Source: Xanthomonas floridensis (lineage in GTDB: Bacteria > Pseudomonadota > Gammaproteobacteria > Xanthomonadales > Xanthomonadaceae). From it: a DNA stretch of 64,000 nt. Each line of letters starts with the position of its first letter. The first letter of the stretch is position 1. The notes below the pieces were generated by a model. The model saw nothing but the letters and a program-made list of their open reading frames with translations, made no database searches and was not told where the DNA came from. The DNA is taken from contig NZ_LXNG01000009.1 in assembly GCF_001642575.1 (NCBI RefSeq), forward strand, positions 1 through 64,000, in the 5' to 3' direction. Shown piece by piece: positions 3 through 10,550 of the stretch. Both the position numbers and the translations under genes were made by a program.

Positions 3-233
3 TGCAGCATGAGTCGGCGTGGCAACTGCCACGACAACGCACCCGTGGAGAGCTTCTTCGGCCTGCTCAAACGCGAGCGGATCAGGCGGCGGATCTACCC
101 GACCAGGGACGCCGCACGCGCCGAGGTATTCGACTACATCGAGATGTTCTACAACCCAAAACGCCGCCACGGTTCAACTGGCGACCTGTCGCCTGTAGAG
201 TTCGAACGGCGCTACGCGCAACGAGGGTCTTGA
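3..233 (+). mobile_element. IS3-family transposase (OrfB), 3' end
   Basis: This is the C-terminal end of an IS3-type DDE integrase-like transposase. The reading frame is already open at the window edge, so the 5' part lies outside and truncation cannot be judged. The motif SMSRRGNCHDNAPVESFF carries the last catalytic glutamate, followed by the usual KRERIRRRIY and YNPKRRH segments. The right end of the element is probably within about 30 bases of the stop, where a GTGTCTACGGAACCCTGG stretch looks like an IS3-type terminal sequence, but the matching left end is not visible. It marks the left edge of the accessory island. Confidence 0.85.
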
Positions 234-619: not shown

Positions 620-629
620 GCAGCGTGTT

Positions 630-946
630 GCACCACATCACCATCCACATGATTCTGCCGCCTGCGTTGGCCGAGCAGGCGCAAACGATTGCCGCCATCC
701 GCCATCCGCCAGTCGCCGTTGTCAGCGCAGGATCTGCAGCGCGAGGAAACGCAGTACCGCTATCGCATCGTCGGCACCGAGCTGCAGCCGCAGTGGCGTG
801 AGGCGATCAACCTTGCAACCCAAAGCATGCGCGATGAGTACGGCCTTATCGGCGCTGGATCGTTAAAACTGCAACGCGGCGCCGGTGGCATGTTTGGCGC
901 CAATAGCCAGCCGGGCCATCTCAAGCAAACAGTTTGCTACGCTTGA
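630..946 (+). pseudogene. Decayed duplicate of the toxin central module
   Basis: The stretch is clearly homologous to 3409-3700 inside the large toxin gene. Both encode the segment ETQYRYRIVGTELQPQWREA and then a GAGS-KLQRG segment. The copy has no start of its own. A 7-base tandem ATCCGCC insertion near 700-713 shifts its frame, and it stops at 944-946 just before the immunity gene. It looks like the leftover of an earlier toxin gene, or of a recombination event that installed the present immunity/toxin pair. No function is expected. Confidence 0.8.
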
Positions 947-971: not shown

Positions 972-1604
972 GTGTCTACTCAGAATGCACCCAGGAAAGG
1001 CGAGTTCTACATCCTCAGGTCCGATATCGGGGGAGGCGGTCGTGGGCATGGCGTGGAGTTCGAGAATGAAAAGGCTGTGCCGTTCTCCATTGCCTACAGC
1101 CGGCCAGGCGAGGACGCGGGCCTGGCTGCATTGAAGGAAATCCCGCGCCTGCGCTACGACAGCCGCATCGGCGATATGCCCGATGACCTTGATAGTGGAT
1201 TCAAGGACTACTGGCTGGTCTCCGAGCCGCTGAAGCAGGTTCTTGAAGCTGCCGACCCGGAGGGCTTTGCCTTCGCGCTATGCGACTTCCGATTGGAAGA
1301 CGGTACGCCCGGGGCACCGCACTATCTTTGCGAGGTAGTGCGGATTATCGACGCCATAGACGAGGAGACATCCACCGTCAAGGTGTTGACCGGGTATCCA
1401 AATGGCAAGTACTACAGCCTTTTGGGGGGGGCAAAGTTGGCATTCAGAAAAGACGTAGTCGGGGTCGCGCATGTCTTCAGAACACCTTATACGGCAGATG
1501 CATTTTGCGATCGGTTCTTGCGAGACACCTTGCTTTCCCAGGGGTTCGGCAAATCACCCAGGAAGCGTGGCGTTCGGCTAATCGACGCCGCAGATTATGG
1601 TTAA
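972..1604 (+). CDS. Imm11-family (DUF1629) immunity protein
   Basis: The 210-residue protein has the look of the Imm11/DUF1629 family. These are cytosolic immunity proteins best known from Myxococcus MXAN_0049, which protects against a neighbouring nuclease toxin. It has the typical KDYWLVSEPLKQVLE segment in the middle and a FRTPY-DAFCDRFLRD C-terminal part. A GTG start at 972 is chosen because GGAGAAAAA precedes it; the frame is open further upstream but overlaps the decayed module. The gene ends 34 bases before the AHH nuclease gene on the same strand, the usual order for a toxin/immunity pair. Pairing is inferred from this context. Confidence 0.72.
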   Translation: MSTQNAPRKGEFYILRSDIGGGGRGHGVEFENEKAVPFSIAYSRPGEDAGLAALKEIPRLRYDSRIGDMPDDLDSGFKDYWLVSEPLKQVLEAADPEGFAFALCDFRLEDGTPGAPHYLCEVVRIIDAIDEETSTVKVLTGYPNGKYYSLLGGAKLAFRKDVVGVAHVFRTPYTADAFCDRFLRDTLLSQGFGKSPRKRGVRLIDAADYG

Positions 1605-1638
1605 AAATTTCTCCGCATGGATTTTGGGGTAAAGACAG

Positions 1639-4600
1639 ATGCCGGCCAGTAACGTCATCCTTGAAAGTCATCATGTCATTGAAAACACCATCTTTCGCAA
1701 GCATGACTTGCTCAAAAAGTTGGCCGAGCATCACTTGATCGAAAAGGATATATCGACCAATCGTCTCTATCTTCCGGTAGAGGGTGAGCTGGCTGACGAA
1801 ATCGAAACTTCTCCCCACCGAGGACGCACGCGAAGGTCTTATACGGATGCAATTGTGGATTATCTTAACAATCTCCGTAGCTCCTCCGATGGCCGTGCCG
1901 CCATGGGTGATGACGTTGCCGCATTGAAGCGCGTCGCCGCCCAAGTCCACGACCTGCAGGACACCCTCAAAGTCGCGCTGATCAATCGCGATATGTTCGC
2001 AACCACTCCGGATCACTTGACCAAGGCCGAGACGAACGCACAAAACTACCGCACTATTTCCGAGTACGAGCAATACCGCACTGCCCACGCCGACCAGTTG
2101 AAGACGCTGCGCTCCATGAGCAACGTTGAAGCCGAGTGGGCCGCGATCACCCATTCCGAGCAGCGGATCGCAAAGGTGATCGATGACGCACGCACGACCG
2201 GCAAAAATCTGGTCGCGGTCCCGAAAGAACGCGATGCCGTTATCCGCGAGATCGCCGGCCGAGAAGAATTGCGCATGGCGATTGCGCACGCCGAAGATGC
2301 CGGCCGAATAAGGCTATCCGAGTCCAATGCGGCAGTGGTCCAGCAGGTACTGGATGACACGCCGTCAACCATCGGCGGTGCTTCCCCCAGTATTCGCAAC
2401 GTAGCAGGCGCCGCACCGCATCCATACACGCCGCTCTCGCAGCGCGGTTTCGTCACTCCCGAGTTGCTGGCAGGCGATCTATCTGCAGGCCAAGTAATGC
2501 GCACTGCCGGTCTGCTAGCCACCGCCGCCGACACGGTGATGACCGGCCAACGCGCTACACGTTTCCTCGGCCAGGACAACCCGCTCGCCGCGCAATCGGA
2601 GCTTGCCCACTTTGCCGGCCGCAACGTCGGCGGCTGGGCCGGCGGCACGGCGGCTGCCTACGCGCTGGGCAGCTCGGGCGCCGGGCCGATGGTGCTGATC
2701 GCGGCCGATGCGTATTTCTTGAGTACCGCCGGCGAGAAGGTTGCCGCGTTGCTCGACAACCGTGCCATCTACACCCAGACCGATCGCGAGGGTATCCAGT
2801 GGTCGTTCAACGGCGTCGCCTGGGCACGCGAGGGCAAGGCCGACACCACCAACGACGGCATCGACAACCCGATATCCACACCGATCACCGCCAGCTACCA
2901 GAAGGCACGCGAACTCAATTACCAGGCCACCAACGCCGCTGCAGCGCTCGCCCTCAAGGATGCCCCCGCTCCGCAGGATCCGTATCGCCAGCCGGCCAAT
3001 GCCACTGACCGCCCCAGCCTGAGCAGCGCCGACTGGCGACGCGATGCAGCGGACGGTCAGTGGCATCGGCTGGTCAAGGCCGAGATCGCTGGCGCCAATG
3101 ATCGCGGCAGCTACGTGCAGGAAACCGCCTTGCCGCACCGCAAAGCCGAACTGGACGCGCAGGCGCAGGACACCATCGCCCGCAACATCGCCAACAGTCC
3201 CGGCGCCATTGCCGCGCGCTACGAACTGGCGCACCACCGCAGCGGCTGGGCGGCCGATGGCCTGCCAATGTCGCCAGCGGTGCAGCAGGCGCTGCCGGAT
3301 CCAGATGCCTTGACCGCCTCGAACGGCCAGCGCTACTACCGCGATATCGAAGGCCAGTGGACCAGCAACGGCGCCCCACCCGATGGCAACCGCGTGCTGG
3401 AACTGGAGACCATGCGCGCGATGCTGCTGCCGGCACTGGCCGAGCAGGCGCAAGCGATTGCCGCCATCCGCCAATCGCCACCGTCAGCGCAGGATCTGCA
3501 GCACGAGGAAACACAGTACCGCTACCGCATCGTCGGCACCGAGTTGCAGCCGCAGTGGCGCGAGGCGATCGAGCTTGCGACCCAGCGCACGCGCGAAGAG
3601 CACGGCCTGACCGGCGCTGGATCGGTAAAACTGCAGCGCGGCCCTGGTGGAAGCTTCGGCGCCGATAGTCCGATTGCGCATCTGCAACGCGGCCCCGATG
3701 GCGTAGAGCGTATTGCAGCAGTCACCAGCACCGAGGACATTCGCCAGGCGCTGCAGGAGGTACAGGCGCGGCAGAACCCGGCCCCGCCGATACAGCAGCT
3801 GGCCTCTGCGCCTCGCTCATCGGACGGATCCGCAGATGCGGACACGTCGTCTTCCGCCCCCTCCAACCAGCATGCGCTCGACGTGCAGGCGCGGGGCCAG
3901 GCGGCCAGCGCCGCGCAGGAGCGTCAGGAACGGCAGCAGGAGGACCGGCAAGTGCAAGACCAGCAGCTAGCGCAGGCACGCGCGCACAGGCTGCAGGAGC
4001 AAACCGCGCACGAAGACCGGGTGCAGGACGCTCAGGCGCTGCAGGCGCATGCATTGCAGGAGCTTCGCCAGCAAGAGCCGCAACGGCTGGAGCAGCATGA
4101 ACGTCAGACGCAGGACACCCAACAGCGCGAGCAGGCAAAGCAACAGGCGCAAGAGAGCCAACAGCGCGAGCAGGCGCAGCGGCAGGCTCACGACACCCTG
4201 CAGCGCGAACAGGAAACACGTCAGGACCAGCAAGTACAACTGCGCGATCAGGCGCAGCAGGCACAAGATGCTCATCGTCCTGAGCAACAGTCGCTCCATG
4301 CAGGGGACGCCGGACAGCCCGAGCAGGAGCTGCGCGCGCGCCAAGCCGCGGCGCAGGCGCATCACTCCACCCAAGACATGCCGCTACCCGTTTCGCCGCT
4401 GCTTCAAGCACAGGACGCGCAAGCGCAAGAAAGGCAAGCGCATCAGGGCCAGGACGTTATTGCCCAGCACACGCAAGCACAGCAGCGAGCGCACGGGCAA
4501 TCCCGCGCAGACGAGATGGCGCCGCCCCCACATGCTCGGACAACACTCGCAGCAGCGCACCGAAGAAACGCCGCTGCACCTAACGCAGACCGTTGAAATC

Positions 4601-5662
4601 GCGCATGCAGTGCCAGCAGGTCCGCAACGTGGCGCAGCGGTGCGCGAGCAACAGCCGCCGATTGCGGACCAGGGAGTGTCGACGCAACCGTCCGAGCAAC
4701 CGGCACACACGCAGCTCGCTCAAATGCGGAACGCGCCACCAGCGCTATCGCGCGCTACACCGTTGGGCGCCGAGCAAGATGACGCTCCACAGGCGCAGAC
4801 GCCGCAACCCACCGTGCTGGAAATGCAGGACGACCTTGCGTCGTTGTCATCGTCCACGGACCTTGCCCACGCGTCGGGGCTCTCGATGGACGCGCCCACC
4901 GCAGAACGCTCGGTCGGCGAGCCTGCGAGCGTCTCGGCAGCGCGCCAGCCGGCGTTGCCCGCGCAGAGTGTGGCGCAAGACGCGCCCGCTGCCCCAACGC
5001 CTGGAAGCCCCGAAGCGTGGCTCGCAACGTTACAGAAAATGCGTGCCTTGCGCGTCCAGATCGAACAGGATCTTGAGATGGACACCCGTGTCTTCCAAGC
5101 GCGTCAGGCGCGCATGGTGCGCGGCGAACAACCGTATACGGAACTGGAACTGCGCGATGGCTACGACCCGGATAGCCCCTCGGCGCTGAGGAAAATCGCC
5201 TCCGGCCCCCAGGACGCCGTCTCCCGCAGGGATGCACCGAGCGCCGTTGCGCACACAGGCAACGCGCAGGCCGATGACCAGCAACCCAGGCGGAGGAATG
5301 TCAGCAAGAACCAGGATGTCAACGATCTCATCTACGCTATAGACTCCAAAAACGACGTGGCGATCGATGAAGCCTTGATGCGGATCGCCAATAGCGCCAG
5401 CACCCATGCGTTGATCCAACGCGGGCGCGAACATCTGGAAGCCAAGGCCATGCAGGAAGCACAGGAACAGGTCGGCGCACGCCAGGCGTTGGCAATGGAG
5501 ACGCCAGCAGAAGTGCAGACCAGTCGTGGCCCGGTGATGGTGATGACGTTGCCGCAGTTCGCCCACGGACCCATGATGCAGAGCGGACCGCAGGGTGACG
5601 GTGGTGGGGGCGACGGTGGTGGCGGAGGAGGTGGTGGTGGTGGCGCCGGAGGTGGTGGGTGA
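1639..5662 (+). pseudogene. AHH-nuclease polymorphic toxin, split by a +1 frameshift
   Basis: The first 70 residues carry the AHH nuclease pattern of the HNH/EndoVII superfamily: a SHHVIE motif (HH at 11-12), LYLP (43-46) and SPHRG (58-62). The DNase activity is a family inference. A hydrophobic glycine/alanine-rich stretch follows around residues 330-375, then a conserved YRYRIVGTELQPQW block, and from about residue 740 a very Gln-rich, probably coiled region. The frame ends at 4596, but coding continues in the next frame to 5662 and ends in a polyglycine tail. Removing one C from the C5 run at 4525-4529 would join both parts into about 1,340 residues. The N-terminal nuclease and Gln-rich tail resemble Xanthomonas type IV effectors (X-Tfe), but no XVIPCD domain could be confirmed. 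Confidence 0.65.
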
Positions 5663-5704
5663 TTCAGAGCGCGTGCAGCGCATCGACTTTTTGACAGGAG
5701 CAGC

Positions 5705-6355
5705 ATGATGGAGATGCAGGACAGATCTGTATTGGCCGACGCCGACGCCGCGTTGCATGCGTCCAGCCAGACATTGCAGGACGCGATCGATGTCATGGCA
5801 ACCTTGATTGCGGTGCAAAAGCAGGGAGCGCGGGGCCTGGAAGATCTGCTGCGACAACAGCTGCAGCTACTCCAGAGCGCAGTCAACAGCGCCGATCAGC
5901 GGGTCACTCGGGTGGTCGAAAGCGCGCTGCCACGCTTGACGCAATTGAGCCAGCAGGCGTTGACGCAGACTCTGGAACCTGCGGCAGCGCACTTCACCAA
6001 GCAGATGGCCGATGCGGACCAGACGCTGCAGCAGGCCACCCAACGCTATGCGAAAGCGCAGCACACCCTGGAAACGACAACCACGCGACGCATGTGGATC
6101 GCTTCGATCGCCTTGTTGGTGTCGGGTGTCCTGAGTGTTGTCGTCGCAGGCTACGCGGCCGACAACACGAAAGCGGCGATCGCGGAAGCAGCGCAGCGCA
6201 AGTCGGAAATCGCCTATCTGGATCGGGTCGTGCGCGCCAATCTGGTGCCCTGCGGCACAGACAGACTCTGCGCCGAGGTCGAGAAGAAGGGGCCGCGCTA
6301 CGGCGATCGAGGCCAGTATTGGGAAGTCGTGCTTCGCAACTCCGCTTCGCAATAA
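5705..6355 (+). CDS. Coiled-coil membrane protein of unknown function
   Basis: This 216-residue protein is not recognised. Residues 15-125 are Gln/Ala/Leu-rich with heptad-like spacing, suggesting a coiled coil. One membrane segment follows (WIASIALLVSGVLSVVVAG, about 132-150), then a further charged helix and a C-terminal part with CGTDRLC and RYGDRGQYW. The last segment faintly recalls accessory proteins of plasmid mobilisation systems. It starts 42 bases after the toxin frame ends, behind a GACAGGAG ribosome binding site, so it is probably cotranscribed with it. A role in toxin delivery or membrane anchoring is only inference from position. Confidence 0.55.
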   Translation: MMEMQDRSVLADADAALHASSQTLQDAIDVMATLIAVQKQGARGLEDLLRQQLQLLQSAVNSADQRVTRVVESALPRLTQLSQQALTQTLEPAAAHFTKQMADADQTLQQATQRYAKAQHTLETTTTRRMWIASIALLVSGVLSVVVAGYAADNTKAAIAEAAQRKSEIAYLDRVVRANLVPCGTDRLCAEVEKKGPRYGDRGQYWEVVLRNSASQ

Positions 6356-6377
6356 AAGCTGGCCGGTAGTGCCGGCT
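6351..6377 (-). terminator. Probable intrinsic terminator of mfd
   Basis: A stem of seven pairs with one wobble (AGCTGGC at 6357-6363 with GCCGGCT at 6371-6377) is followed, on the minus strand, by TTTTATT. It sits just beyond the mfd stop codon and also closes the converging island genes. Confidence 0.55.
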
Positions 6378-6421
6378 TACGCGACATGCGCCCTCGATAT
6401 GTGCAGACTTGGGTGTTGTTC

Positions 6422-9400
6422 TTAACCCGGTGCCAAGGCCGCCAATAATCCGCGCGCGGCGTTGAAGCGGTCCGCGCCCTCGGGCAGCGGCAACTTGATG
6501 CGCAGCTTGTCCGGGCCATCCATGGTGTAGATCTTCGGTTGCTTCTGGATCATCTGGATGATGGTCATCGGATCGATGGCCGGCTTGGCTTCGAACAACA
6601 GCCGCCCGCCGTTTTCGCCCAGATCCAGTTTGCGCACGCCCAGCGCATTGGCCTGCAGCTTGAGCTCGGCAATGGCGAACAGGTGCTTGACCGGGTCCGG
6701 CAGCAGGCCGAAGCGGTCGATCATTTCCACCTGCAATTCGCGTAAAGCCTCGGCATCGCGCGCGCTGGAAATGCGCTTGTACAAGGTCAGGCGCGTATGT
6801 ACGTCGGGCAGGTAATCCTCGGGAATCAGCGAGGCCACGTGCAGCTCCACCTCGGCGCCGCGCACTTCCTCACCGGCATCCAGGTCGGGCAGCTTGCCCT
6901 GGCGGATGCTGCGCACCGCGCGTTCCAGCAGTTCGGTATAGAGGCTGAAGCCGACCTCGGCCATCTGCCCGCTCTGGTCTTCGCCGAGCAACTCACCGGC
7001 GCCGCGGATTTCCAGATCGTGCGTGGCCAGCGTAAAGCCGGCACCGAGCTCGTCCATGGAAGCGATCGCTTCCAGGCGTTTCTCGGCATCGGAGGTCATC
7101 GAGCGCCGGTCCGGCACCACCAGATAGGCGTAGGCGCGATGGTGCGAACGGCCCACGCGGCCACGCAGCTGATGCAACTGCGCGAGGCCGAAACGGTCGG
7201 CGCGATTGATGATGATGGTGTTGGCGTTGGGGATGTCGATGCCCGATTCGATGATCGTGGTCGACAGCAACACGTTGAAGCGCTGCTTCTGGAAATCCAG
7301 CATCACCCGTTCCAGCTCGCGTTCGGGCATCTGCCCGTGTGCGATACCGATGCGCGCTTCCGGCACCAGTTCGGACAACTCGCGCTGCATGCGCACGATG
7401 CTTTCCACATCGTTGTGCAGGAAGTACAGCTGCCCGCCGCGGCTCAACTCGCGCTGGAATGCTTCGCGCAGCAGCGTGTTGTCCCAGGCGGTGATGAAGG
7501 TCTGCACCGCCAGCCGGTTCGGCGGCGGGGTGGCGATGATGGACAGGTCGCGCAGGCCGGCCATGGCCATATTGAGCGTGCGCGGGATCGGCGTGGCGGT
7601 GAGGGTGAGCAGGTGCACGTTGGCACGCATCGCCTTGAGCGCTTCCTTCTGGCGCACGCCGAAGCGCTGTTCTTCGTCGACCACGACCAGGCCGAGATCC
7701 TTGAACTTCACATCCGGCTGCAACAGGCGGTGCGTGCCGATGATGACGTCGATATCACCGCTGGCGACCTTCTCCAGTTCGGCCTTGATTTCCTTGGTAC
7801 TCTTGAAGCGCGACAGCACTTCCACCTTCATCGGGTAATCGGCGAAGCGGTCGCGGAAATTGCGGTAGTGCTGTTCGGCCAGCAATGTGGTCGGCACCAG
7901 CACGGCGACCTGTTTGCCGGCACTGGCGGCGGCAAACGCCGCACGCACCGCAACTTCGGTCTTGCCGAAGCCCACGTCGCCGCAAACCACGCGGTCCATC
8001 GGTTGGCTGCTGCCCAGATCGCGCAGCGTCGCATCGATGGCGGCCAACTGGTCGCCGGTTTCCTCGAACGGAAATCCAGCCGCGAACGGCTCGTACATCG
8101 CGCGGTCCACCTGCAACGCCAGGCCGGCGCGTGCACGGCGACGTGCCTGGATCTCCAGCAGTTCCGCGGCCACGTCGCGGACCTTTTCCGCAGCCTTGCG
8201 TTTGGCCTTGGTCCATTGCTCGCCGCCCAGCGAATGCAGCGGCGCGGTCTCGGCCGAGGCACCGGAGTAGCGGCTGATCAGGTGCAGCTGCGCCACCGGC
8301 ACATACAGCCGGTCGCCCTTGGCGTATTCGATTTCCAGGAACTCGCCGGGCATGCCGCCGGCATCGAGCACGATCAGGCCGCGGTAGCGGCCCACGCCGT
8401 GATCCTCGTGCACGATCGGCGCGCCTTCGGACAGCTCGCCCAGGTCGCGAATGATCGCTTCCGGCTCGCGCCCCACCCGGCGCGTGCGGCGCGGCTGGTT
8501 AGCCCGCTCCGGAAACAGCTGGCGCTCGGTGAGCACGGCGATCTGCGGGTCATCCAGTGCAAAGCCATCTTCCAGCGGTGCTACGGTAATGCCGAAACGC
8601 AGCGTGGCCGCGGCCAGGAATGCAGGCAGGTCGGCGACCACGTCCGGCTTGAGCTGTGCGGCGGCCAAGACTTCCATCAAGGCCTCGCGACGGCCGGCCG
8701 AATCGGCGGCCACCAGCACGCGGCCCGGGTAATGGCCCAGGAAGGACGCCAGCGCCTGCCCGGCGGGTGCGTCCTTTGCGGCCACCGGCAGCGGCGGCAA
8801 CGGTTGGTCGCCGAGCGCGGCGGCGTCCTCGATGCGCGGGTGATCGGCTGGCCACACTTCGATGCGGGCCAGCTTGTTGAGCCGCTCGCGCAGCGCATCG
8901 GGCGACTGGTACAGCTCGTCCGGCGGCAGCAGCGGCCGCTCCACATCGTGGCGGCGCTGTTCGTAGCGGTGTTGCGCCTGGGTCCAGAACGCATCGGCGG
9001 CATTGGAAACGCCGGTGGCGATCAGTGGCAGCACGCGCTTGTCCAGATAATCGAACAGCGTGGCTGTCTTGCTGAAGAACATCGGCAGGTAATACTCGAC
9101 GCCAGAGGGCGCGATGCCGGACTTCAGGTCCTGGTACAACGCGCTGCGGCGGGTATCCACGTCAAAACGTTCGCGCAGGCAGGCCAGCACGCGTTCGATG
9201 CTGGCATCGTCCATCGGCACTTCGCGGCCGGGCAGCATCTTCACTGCGTCCACCTTGTCCAGCGAGCGCTGCGACTCGGGATCGAAGGCACGGATGGAAT
9301 CGATATCCTCGTCCAGCAGCTCTATCCGCAGTGGCGTGTCCGCACCCATCGGGAACACATCCAGCAAGCCGCCGCGCACCGCAAAATCGCCCGGGTCCAT

Positions 9401-9889
9401 CACCTGCGGGACGTTGCGGTAACCGGCGCTTTCCAGGCGGCGTTTTTCCGCCTCCAGATCCAGCCGCTGGCCAACGGTGAGATCGAAGCTGCCGCCGACG
9501 ATATAGCTCAGTGGCGCCAACTGCTGCAGCAACGTCTGCACCGGCACGATCACCACACCCTTGCTCAGGCCGGGCAGGCGATGCAGCGCAGCCAGCCGCT
9601 GGCTGATGATCTCCGGGTGCGGGCTGAACTGGTCGTAGGGCAGGGTTTCCCAGTCGGGAAACGGCACCACCGGCAGCGACGAGGATTCGCCCAACAGGGC
9701 CTGCAGATCGGACTCGATCTGGTGTGCACTCTGGTTGTCGCGTGCGATCACCAGCAGCGGCCCGGCACGCGCCTCGGCAGCCCGCGCAATCGACCAGGCC
9801 AATGCGGTGGGCGACGACGGTGCGCGCCAATAGGCGCGGAGCTGGCCAGACTTGGGCAGCGGCGGAGAGGGGTAGGTAGGCGACGGCAT
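6422..9889 (-). CDS. mfd: Transcription-repair coupling factor Mfd
   Basis: The 1,155-residue protein matches Mfd in length and order. An N-terminal UvrB-like region (residues about 20-350) is followed by the RNA-polymerase-binding CarD-like domain (VHEDHGVGRYRGL), a SF2 helicase with Walker A GDVGFGKTEVAV and DEEQRFG, helicase motifs through LRGRVGRS, and the C-terminal TRCF domain. It removes RNA polymerase stalled at lesions and recruits UvrA for strand-specific repair. It is encoded alone and faces the accessory island. The MPSPTYPSPP start fits the neighbouring non-coding gap. Confidence 0.97.
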   Translation of the reverse strand: MPSPTYPSPPLPKSGQLRAYWRAPSSPTALAWSIARAAEARAGPLLVIARDNQSAHQIESDLQALLGESSSLPVVPFPDWETLPYDQFSPHPEIISQRLAALHRLPGLSKGVVIVPVQTLLQQLAPLSYIVGGSFDLTVGQRLDLEAEKRRLESAGYRNVPQVMDPGDFAVRGGLLDVFPMGADTPLRIELLDEDIDSIRAFDPESQRSLDKVDAVKMLPGREVPMDDASIERVLACLRERFDVDTRRSALYQDLKSGIAPSGVEYYLPMFFSKTATLFDYLDKRVLPLIATGVSNAADAFWTQAQHRYEQRRHDVERPLLPPDELYQSPDALRERLNKLARIEVWPADHPRIEDAAALGDQPLPPLPVAAKDAPAGQALASFLGHYPGRVLVAADSAGRREALMEVLAAAQLKPDVVADLPAFLAAATLRFGITVAPLEDGFALDDPQIAVLTERQLFPERANQPRRTRRVGREPEAIIRDLGELSEGAPIVHEDHGVGRYRGLIVLDAGGMPGEFLEIEYAKGDRLYVPVAQLHLISRYSGASAETAPLHSLGGEQWTKAKRKAAEKVRDVAAELLEIQARRRARAGLALQVDRAMYEPFAAGFPFEETGDQLAAIDATLRDLGSSQPMDRVVCGDVGFGKTEVAVRAAFAAASAGKQVAVLVPTTLLAEQHYRNFRDRFADYPMKVEVLSRFKSTKEIKAELEKVASGDIDVIIGTHRLLQPDVKFKDLGLVVVDEEQRFGVRQKEALKAMRANVHLLTLTATPIPRTLNMAMAGLRDLSIIATPPPNRLAVQTFITAWDNTLLREAFQRELSRGGQLYFLHNDVESIVRMQRELSELVPEARIGIAHGQMPERELERVMLDFQKQRFNVLLSTTIIESGIDIPNANTIIINRADRFGLAQLHQLRGRVGRSHHRAYAYLVVPDRRSMTSDAEKRLEAIASMDELGAGFTLATHDLEIRGAGELLGEDQSGQMAEVGFSLYTELLERAVRSIRQGKLPDLDAGEEVRGAEVELHVASLIPEDYLPDVHTRLTLYKRISSARDAEALRELQVEMIDRFGLLPDPVKHLFAIAELKLQANALGVRKLDLGENGGRLLFEAKPAIDPMTIIQMIQKQPKIYTMDGPDKLRIKLPLPEGADRFNAARGLLAALAPG

Positions 9890-10550
9890 CAGCCCGCGAT
9901 TTTATCAGAGCCCCCGCAGTGCCCGGTCCATCTGGCGTGAAAGCTGGGTCGTACGGTGCACGGAGAAGGGCGCTGCAGGGCGACAGCCCTGGCGAACTCG
10001 TGCATCTGTCTTGTTGGCGGCTCTCTGTGGGGCCTGGAAAGTCCAAAGCCACGCTGGTCGAGTGCGCGGTGCCCTCACCGCTTGCGGGACACGCCGTGAA
10101 TCCGTCCCTGCAGGCTCGGTGGCGGCATCCATGCCATCACACGGTCCCGCAAGCGGCGAGGACACCGCGCCAGACGGTTTCACTTGGCGCCTTGGTATGA
10201 GCCAAACACAGCGCTCCCGTCAGCACGGCGGCACTCTCGACGGTGGTGGCAGCTCTCAGTGGCCAAACGTCGGGCTGTCTACCTCCGGGGAGCGGCGGCG
10301 CGGATGCGGCGTGGCATCCATGCCAACCCAGGATCCCGCAAGCGGCGAGGGGAAGGACCGGCAGGCAGCCTTAGGTGTCAGCCAGAATGCCGATCGTCTC
10401 GGCAGGTTTCGCAGCTCACCGTCGAGGAACGTCAGGTCGCCGCGGAACGGGGGCTTTCCCGTGATGAAGCAAGACCCAGGCCGCGATCGCCCCAAGTAAC
10501 CGCAATCCGCTCTTACGAATCCCAAATCCCGATTCCCGAATCCCAGCCCC
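9890..10550. repeat. Gene-free stretch with REP-like repeats
   Basis: No supported gene lies in these 661 bases. A GC-rich unit occurs three times: GCCCTCACCGCTTGCGGGAC at 10071-10090, its inverted form GTCCCGCAAGCGGCGAGG at 10144-10161, and again TCCCGCAAGCGGCGAGG at 10334-10350. The last two are preceded by the shared GGCATCCATGCC (10133 and 10315 regions). Near 10517-10545 short AATCCC/ATTCCCG units repeat in tandem. The pattern is like REP/BIME elements common between Xanthomonas genes. Confidence 0.6.

What the first reader, a model, noticed from the sequence alone, without database searches (positions are those of the whole stretch)
972..5662. AHH nuclease/Imm11 pair with a giant Gln-rich, polyglycine-tailed body
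The nuclease domain sits at the N terminus, not at the C terminus as in most polymorphic toxins. About 1,200 residues of Gln-rich coiled sequence and a terminal polyglycine follow. N-terminal toxin with C-terminal Gln-rich tail recalls Xanthomonas type IV killing effectors, but no XVIPCD was identified. The delivery route may be new.
Basis: partly seen in the sequence, partly recalled or inferred. Interest (0 to 1): 0.7.

Follow-up and report, generated by a model that had tools for sequence, protein, structure and literature searches.

The report
Nuclease toxin with plasmid-type partner
The window holds a broken copy of a bacteria-killing DNA-cutting toxin, its antidote gene and a small membrane protein related to those that sit behind plasmid-transfer enzymes; relatives suggest that this membrane protein and the toxin's tail form a delivery kit used by several kinds of toxin.

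Summary
Head and antidote are real: Imm11 (972-1604) and an N-terminal AHH nuclease (1639-1998). The toxin gene is broken in its Gln-rich part: one frame ends at 4596, the rest is read in another frame to 5662; a 1322-residue intact paralogue lies in the same genome. Homologues with the same AHH head and middle region can carry XVIPCD, the export domain of Xanthomonas type IV killing effectors. In 35 Xanthomonas genomes, 66 of 73 tails have this partner within 130 bp downstream; none of 8 XVIPCD-tailed homologues examined has it. Tail plus partner also serve lysozyme, Tle1-type and lipase-like heads. Best reading: tail plus partner is a relaxase-style recruitment unit for type IV secretion. 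Export is not shown, and one Paracidovorax genome has the unit with no T4SS detected. My searches of an open-licence library found no paper describing tail or partner.

The parts
3..233 (+). 3' end of an IS3-type transposase at the contig start (the window starts at base 1 of contig C9)
   Evidence: rve_2 PF13333 E 2.4e-14, NF033516 IS3 transposase E 2.2e-25, below its cut-off; window = G000:C9:1-64000
623..921 (+). relic of the toxin's middle region, left of the immunity gene
   Evidence: direct repeats D1 and D2 to 3392-3683, 78-84%; protein match 698-928 at 77%
972..1604 (+). Imm11 immunity protein (ORF can be read from 885)
   Evidence: PF07791 E 5.9e-51
1639..4596 (+). first open frame of the broken toxin gene (985 aa): head, middle region, start of Gln-rich part
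   Evidence: matches the intact paralogue C30 at 79% over residues 1-978
1639..1998 (+). AHH nuclease head
   Evidence: PF14412 E 7.1e-6, above cut-off; conserved residues in 38 heads
2476..3783 (+). middle region, function unknown, shared with XVIPCD-tailed effectors
   Evidence: matches in 31 of 35 Xanthomonas genomes; no Pfam hit above cut-off
3740..4593 (+). Gln-rich stretch (18-33% Gln per 100 residues)
4390..4600 (.). approximate zone in which the coding frame changes (gene broken)
   Evidence: first frame stops at 4596, second is open 4049-5662
4595..5662 (+). second open piece: rest of the linker, tail module, polyglycine
   Evidence: no Pfam family above cut-off
5291..5596 (+). tail module (about 100 residues, ends in the TSRGPVMVMTLPQFA..GP block)
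   Evidence: match 5258-5644 at E 3.3e-48 to the intact paralogue's tail; alignment of 29 tails
5597..5659 (+). polyglycine end
5705..6355 (+). partner gene: 216 aa, coiled coil, one membrane span (130-148), C-terminal domain with Cys183 and Cys189; homologous to MbeB / MOBQ-relaxase partner proteins

Best explanation
The window carries a three-gene unit, immunity - toxin - partner, whose toxin gene is broken here. In intact relatives the toxin is an antibacterial DNase effector: AHH head, middle region of unknown role, Gln-rich linker, tail module, polyglycine. Imm11 protects the producer. The tail module with the partner replaces the XVIPCD as the export unit: the partner sits in the inner membrane with its coiled coil in the cytoplasm, binds the tail, and hands the toxin to a type IV secretion apparatus, in the way in which small membrane proteins encoded behind plasmid relaxases help relaxases to leave. 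Shown here by sequence: the domains, the break, the kinship with XVIPCD effectors, the tail family, its tight linkage to the partner, the partner's homology to relaxase-partner genes, and the use of the module by unrelated toxin heads. Inferred: tail-partner binding, membrane topology, hand-off, and that the machine is a T4SS.
For: Partner linkage: 66 of 73 tail matches in 35 genomes have a partner match on the same strand within 130 bp downstream. The partner follows the tail, not the head: besides AHH it follows tails on Tle1-type phospholipases (L101, L102: PF09994 E 2.3e-12 and 7.9e-14; L269 E 4.6e-19), phage-lysozyme proteins (L252, L254) and GHSLGGG lipase-like proteins with an ankyrin-repeat gene upstream (L124-L128). 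None of 8 loci with an XVIPCD-tailed homologue of the middle region has a partner (L116, L117, L119-L123; L221; XVIPCD). Partner homology: HHalign of 22 partners against 10 plasmid proteins probability 98.6, E 1.5e-15, 135 columns; against 4 MbeB proteins 97.2; reversed controls 1.4 and 3.4. In 9 of the 10 plasmid loci the gene directly follows a relaxase (L131, L133-L135, L137-L141; not L136). Tail families: T1-T2 97.1, T1-T4 95.8, T2-T4 95.3, T3-T4 83.3 (reversed controls done for four pairings involving T1 or T2, all below 1). All of 17 partners have one strong hydrophobic span with net positive charge before it; a C-terminal Cys pair in 16 of 17. Parallel case: homologues with a 'tail8' end have a VirD4-like coupling-protein gene 0.5-2.4 kb upstream in 10 of 10 loci (L008, L109-L115, L222, L223) and 5 of 8 loci of a third XVIPCD-like type have one directly downstream, so on this scaffold the tail type goes with a recruitment gene. 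All 25 tail-bearing Xanthomonas genomes have a VirB4 match but 10 of 25 have no T6SS VipB. Literature, passages only: relaxase TraI lacks XVIPCD yet binds VirD4 (PMC10432156); a reference title states that the R1162 relaxase's transport signals require the small protein MobB (PMC3297438); in X. citri an XVIPCD-less XAC3266 homologue, XAC2247, is toxic and is neutralised by XAC2246 but not by XAC2248 (PMC10989847), which fits immunity - toxin - partner if XAC2247 is of this type (not verified).
Against: No export data. Tail presence does not follow the canonical X-T4SS coupling protein: 19 of 26 genomes with it and 6 of 9 without it have tails. VirB4 is so common that its co-occurrence says little: of 28 Xanthomonas genomes tested only G009 and G024 had no match. 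Paracidovorax valerianellae has the whole unit (L169) with neither VirD4 nor VirB4 found. 52 of 118 partner matches have no match to the giants' tail beside them; of 21 loci read, 13 show another tail-bearing protein directly upstream, the others a transposase, a tail-less protein or nothing clear. Outside the genus 12 of 20 loci have a tail match directly upstream, 2 have tail matches on the other strand, 6 have none. Pairings T1-T3 (6.0) and T2-T3 (32.8) are weak. Partner divergence also follows the head after allowing for the tail (0.495), not only the tail after allowing for the head (0.622). The first BLAST links to plasmids were weak (E 2e-3 to 0.5). No structure could be predicted.
Confidence: 0.5

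Rival explanations
1. The partner is a second, membrane-bound immunity protein (or holds the toxin at the membrane until release), and export uses another signal.
For: It lies in the same operon-like unit (42 bp after the toxin stop), and its divergence partly follows the head (0.495 after allowing for the tail).
Against: It accompanies nuclease, phospholipase, lysozyme and lipase-like heads alike, while AHH/Imm11 effectors with XVIPCD do without it. In X. citri XAC2248 does not neutralise XAC2247 (PMC10989847), if that is this unit.
Confidence: 0.15
2. The tail and partner belong to another exporter (T6SS or a general envelope pathway); the mobilisation homology is only a shared membrane-anchor fold.
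For: P. valerianellae carries the unit with no VirD4 or VirB4 found; tails do not follow the canonical X-VirD4. T6SS was not tested in the two Paracidovorax genomes.
Against: 10 of 25 tail-bearing genomes have no VipB; no single machine other than a VirB4-type T4SS was found in all 25 tail-bearing Xanthomonas genomes among those tested; the same scaffold carries XVIPCD or sits by VirD4 genes.
Confidence: 0.2
3. These are XVIPCD-less 'atypical' effectors that are not injected but act inside the producer as toxin-immunity pairs.
For: Atypical T4SS effectors lacking XVIPCD are described and compared with toxin-antitoxin pairs (PMC10989847); many copies are fragments, and the window copy is broken.
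Against: The tail block is strongly conserved in 29 tails and linked to the partner in 66 of 73 cases; intact 1,270-1,400-aa copies occur in many genomes; wall- and lipid-attacking heads carry the same tail.
Confidence: 0.15

Closest known systems
TfdA (S. maltophilia 20845) and XAC3266: AHH/GHH nuclease X-Tfes (PMC11253643, PMC6536674, PMC6759196; passages)
   Same: N-terminal AHH/GHH nuclease with paired His, large central region, separate immunity gene, similar size in the XVIPCD-tailed homologues here (863-946 aa).
   Different: TfdA and XAC3266 end in XVIPCD; the unit here has tail module, polyglycine and a partner gene instead.
'Atypical T4E' XAC2247-XAC2246 of X. citri (PMC10989847; abstract, sections 5 part 1 and 9, passages)
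   Same: XAC3266 homologue without XVIPCD, toxic in E. coli, neutralised by one neighbour but not by the other.
   Different: The passages I saw describe neither a tail module nor a mobilisation-type partner; I could not match the locus tags to sequence.
MbeB and MOBQ-relaxase partner proteins of small plasmids
   Same: Small protein encoded behind the substrate gene; coiled coil, one membrane span, C-terminal CG..RLCA..D....YG..G.Y domain.
   Different: Partner here follows toxins; the MbeB_N domain (PF04837) is absent.
Polymorphic toxins (CdiA, Rhs; recalled, and PMC3482391 listing)
   Same: Variable toxin head with cognate immunity; truncated extra cassettes beside a full-length copy (L100).
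   Different: Polarity is reversed: toxin at the N terminus, conserved body and tail at the C terminus.

Membership tests
AHH nuclease (PF14412) | profile match above cut-off | tested here: met
   26.4 bits vs 22.3 with residues 1-120 alone; paralogues 22.4 and 22.3 bits at full length; no hit with the whole 985-aa ORF
AHH nuclease (PF14412) | conserved paired His and further residues | tested here: met
   H11/H12 in 37 of 38 heads, N41/P46/P59/H60/G62 in 38 of 38
AHH nuclease (PF14412) | nuclease activity | not testable with these tools
   shown for TfdA by others (PMC11253643, passages)
Imm11 (PF07791) | profile match above cut-off | tested here: met
   173 bits vs 22.1
Imm11 (PF07791) | neutralises the neighbouring toxin | not testable with these tools
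   only co-divergence with the head
X-Tfe (Xanthomonadales T4SS effector) | C-terminal XVIPCD (PF20410) | tested here: not met
   no hit in window pieces or C30/C12 paralogues; HHalign of the four tail sets against 29 XVIPCDs 0.1-4.5
X-Tfe (Xanthomonadales T4SS effector) | immunity gene beside the effector | tested here: met
   Imm11 34 bp upstream
X-Tfe (Xanthomonadales T4SS effector) | X-T4SS in the genome | tested here: met
   VirD4 on C7 with VirB7- and VirB8-like ORFs behind it, as read by eye; VirB4 on C7
X-Tfe (Xanthomonadales T4SS effector) | VirD4-dependent secretion | not testable with these tools
   needs secretion or killing assays
MbeB mobilisation protein | MbeB_N domain (PF04837) | tested here: not met
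   no hit in partners; L142 as positive example E 4.8e-18
MbeB mobilisation protein | membrane span plus C-terminal domain homologous to MbeB / MOBQ partners | tested here: met
   HHalign 97.2 (MbeB), 98.6 (MOBQ partners), reversed controls 1.4 and 3.4
MbeB mobilisation protein | gene next to a relaxase | tested here: not met
   in the loci read it follows toxin-like genes, transposases or others, no relaxase seen
Polymorphic toxin of CdiA/Rhs type | toxin domain at the C terminus | tested here: not met
   AHH is at residues 9-100
T6SS effector | T6SS in all genomes that carry the unit | tested here: not met
   10 of 25 tail-bearing Xanthomonas genomes have no VipB match

The most novel reading that the evidence does not exclude
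Bacteria of this order have a second substrate-recruitment route for killing effectors: a short C-terminal tail module plus a dedicated inner-membrane escort taken over from plasmid mobilisation, so that toxins are handed to a type IV apparatus as relaxases are. The route serves nuclease, phospholipase, lipase-like and wall-attacking toxins in at least 20 of 98 sampled genera that hold the partner family, and could be the 'yet unidentified adaptor' that others have proposed for T4SS effectors.
Probability: 0.42. Interest if true: 0.85.

Novelty: new variant of a known kind. Interest (0 to 1): 0.7.

Why it matters
XVIPCD is used to find the bacteria-killing type IV effectors of this order, so toxins with another export module are missed or written off as effectors that lost their signal. 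A recognisable tail plus a neighbouring partner gene gives a search handle for a further set of antibacterial toxins (partner family in 70 of 398 genomes of the order) and makes a concrete question testable: does a mobilisation-type membrane protein act as a substrate adaptor for protein effectors? The swap of XVIPCD, VirD4-linked and partner-linked tails on one scaffold is also a natural experiment on how T4SS substrates change recruiters.

Tried and rejected
One long Gln-rich protein 972-5662: rejected, two frames. Hidden XVIPCD in the tail: rejected. T6SS as the common machine: disfavoured. Canonical X-VirD4 as a requirement: not supported by co-occurrence. Partner as known family: no Pfam or NCBIfam family above cut-off (weak sub-threshold hits to coiled-coil families ignored). 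Divergence tests were meant to separate head-bound from tail-bound partner evolution but both signals remained. A shared GP.M end in tails, some XVIPCD effectors and some relaxases was seen by eye and not used: too short. Papers: searches in an open-licence library; none of the listings or passages seen describes the tail or the partner; papers outside that library were not seen.
Full report
Where it lies. The window is bases 1-64000 of contig C9 of a Xanthomonas-like genome of 5.25 Mb (the genus is inferred from the named relatives). The contig starts inside an IS3-type transposase (3-233), and a gene read as mfd by eye lies on the other strand at 6422-9889.

What is there. Imm11 at 972-1604 (PF07791, E 5.9e-51) is followed after 34 bp by an AHH-headed ORF (1639-4596, 985 aa). 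The AHH match passes Pfam's cut-off when the head is scanned alone (26.4 vs 22.3 bits) but the whole ORF gave no hit. The conserved end of the protein, with its polyglycine, lies in another frame, open from 4049 to 5662. The gene is therefore broken in the Gln-rich stretch, really or by a sequence error. In the same genome the C30 copy is intact (1322 aa, L006) and the C12 copy (L007) is open to the contig end.

The parts of the toxin. The head keeps the paired His (37 of 38 heads) and other AHH residues. The middle region (2476-3783) is found in 31 of 35 Xanthomonas genomes and has no Pfam family above cut-off. The Gln-rich part covers about 300 residues, not 1,200. The tail module is conserved: in 29 tails the block TSRGPVMV.TLP.FA is nearly unchanged; it matches in 25 of 35 genomes.

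Kinship with type IV killing effectors. Proteins with AHH head and the same middle region but a true XVIPCD exist in the genus: L116 (863 aa, PF20410 E 2.1e-10) and L120 (946 aa, E 4e-9). This is the architecture of TfdA of Stenotrophomonas maltophilia, 899 aa with GHH nuclease, central region and XVIPCD, whose DNase activity and toxicity need H10 and H11 and which is neutralised by its immunity protein (PMC11253643, passages), and of XAC3266 with XAC3267 (PMC6536674 and PMC6759196, passages). The window's genome has 21 XVIPCD matches and an X-T4SS region on C7.

What replaces the XVIPCD. Neither the window pieces nor the C30 and C12 paralogues hit PF20410, and profile comparison of four tail sets with 29 XVIPCDs gives 0.1-4.5. 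Instead there is the tail module, and next to it the partner gene. In 35 genomes 66 of 73 tail matches have a partner match within 130 bp downstream on the same strand (the window allowed was 600 bp); one of the seven misses ends 2 bases before the contig end. None of 8 loci with an XVIPCD-tailed homologue has a partner (L116, L117, L119-L123, L221; L118 was left out because its XVIPCD was not confirmed).

The module is not tied to the nuclease. Tail plus partner occur behind Tle1-type phospholipase heads (L101, L102) and behind GHSLGGG lipase-like proteins with an ankyrin-repeat gene upstream (L124-L128; no Pfam lipase hit, NCBIfam SA1320_fam E 9.9e-5 below its cut-off). Of 21 loci of more distant partners, 13 show a protein with a related tail directly upstream; the rest show transposases, a tail-less protein or nothing clear. 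In a sample of 398 genomes of the order the partner family occurs in 70, in 20 of 98 genera. In 20 loci from other genera, profiles made only from Xanthomonas tails find a tail directly upstream in 12, on the other strand nearby in 2 and not in 6; among the 12 are phage-lysozyme proteins (L252, L254), a protein with a peptidoglycan-binding domain and a sub-threshold M23 match (L257) and a Tle1-type protein (L269). Profile comparisons join the tail sets T1, T2 and T4 (95-97) and T3 with T4 (83), but T1-T3 (6.0) and T2-T3 (32.8) are weak; reversed controls for four pairings stay below 1.

What the partner is. tblastn of the window partner found 20 plasmid records, 19 of them Xanthomonas and one a 3.3-kb MOBQ plasmid at E 2e-3; a divergent partner gave weak hits to MbeB and relaxase-region genes at E 0.1-0.5. 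Profile comparison settles it: 22 partners against 10 plasmid proteins 98.6 (E 1.5e-15, 135 columns), against 4 MbeB proteins 97.2, against reversed alignments 1.4 and 3.4. In 9 of the 10 plasmid loci the gene follows a relaxase directly; in L136 it follows an IS element. The partners lack MbeB_N, so they are relatives, not members of that Pfam family. In all of 17 partners there is one strong hydrophobic span with positive charge before it; 16 of 17 have two Cys in the C-terminal domain. I read this as coiled coil in the cytoplasm and Cys domain in the periplasm; that is inference.

How it probably works. The same scaffold carries other ends. A 'tail8' end has a VirD4-like gene (about 74% to the X-T4SS VirD4) 0.5-2.4 kb upstream in 10 of 10 loci, and a third, XVIPCD-like end has a VirD4-like gene (about 44%) directly downstream in 5 of 8 loci (profile scores of these two ends to XVIPCD are 49.5 and 66.0, reversed 0.3). 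So on this scaffold the kind of tail goes with a recruitment gene. The partner fits that slot. Supporting literature, seen as passages or titles only: TraI of X. euvesicatoria lacks XVIPCD and still binds VirD4, and an unknown adaptor has been proposed (PMC10432156); the R1162 relaxase's transport signals require the small protein MobB (title in the reference list of PMC3297438; homology of R1162 MobB to the partner was not tested).

Which machine. All 25 tail-bearing Xanthomonas genomes have a VirB4 match, 10 of them no T6SS VipB. But the canonical X-VirD4 (at least 90% identity, full length) is present in 26 genomes, of which 19 have tails, and absent or broken in 9, of which 6 have tails, so it is not a requirement. 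Paracidovorax valerianellae holds the whole unit (L169: middle region 96%, tail 97%, head 41%, Imm11 45% to L006) without VirD4 or VirB4 found; P. cattleyae (L182) has distant matches to both. T6SS was not tested in these two. Export by a T4SS is therefore the best guess, not a result.

Is it known? In nine searches of the held library I found no description of the tail or the partner. The nearest is the 'atypical T4E' XAC2247 of X. citri, an XAC3266 homologue without XVIPCD, toxic in E. coli and neutralised by XAC2246 but not XAC2248 (PMC10989847, abstract, sections 5 part 1 and 9, passages). If XAC2247 is of this type, XAC2248 could be the partner; I could not check this.

Evolution. Heads differ more than tails (median identity 43% and 74% in 30 units) and head and Imm11 change together (0.78; 0.675 after allowing for the middle region). 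L100 shows four AHH/Imm11 cassettes in a row, two of them cut in the middle region, with the last full-length copy followed by the partner. The relic at 623-921 fits the same pattern: exchange of heads through the body, with the polarity of CdiA-type systems reversed.

Verdict. The window copy itself is probably not functional as it stands.

Noticed in passing
L008 (G000:C25), 4623-8318 and 8808-10511, minus strand: A homologue with another head and a peptidoglycan-binding domain lies next to a second VirD4-like gene, near a gene read by eye as a MobA/MobL-type relaxase and an ABC exporter of bacteriocin type; 10 of 10 such loci have the VirD4-like gene upstream.
   Followed up: partly
L103, L215, L216, L217, L219: A further class with an XVIPCD-like end and its own VirD4-like gene (about 44% to the X-T4SS one) directly downstream.
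   Followed up: partly
L100, 1597-17288: Tandem array of four Imm11/AHH cassettes, two truncated in the middle region, one full-length copy with the partner at the end.
   Followed up: partly
L101, 2200-7410 minus strand; also G021:C1:4402553-4403629: Tail and partner lie in one open frame (1736 aa in L101), a natural fusion or a frame accident in the polyglycine stretch.
   Followed up: no
L169 and L182: The whole unit occurs in two Paracidovorax species (Burkholderiales), with 96-97% identical middle and tail in one of them: recent transfer between distant bacteria.
   Followed up: partly
L132, 10241-15636 (X. perforans plasmid pLH3.1): The three-gene order is also on large Xanthomonas plasmids, annotated as DUF1629 protein and two hypothetical proteins.
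   Followed up: no
L146 (X. fragariae plasmid pYL19), 4918-8314: A partner gene behind two hypothetical genes without the usual tail, on a plasmid with a relaxase and a DotA/TraY gene.
   Followed up: no
L255, L256, L263, L148, L158, L162: Partner genes without a recognisable toxin upstream, three of them behind transposase genes as read by eye.
   Followed up: no
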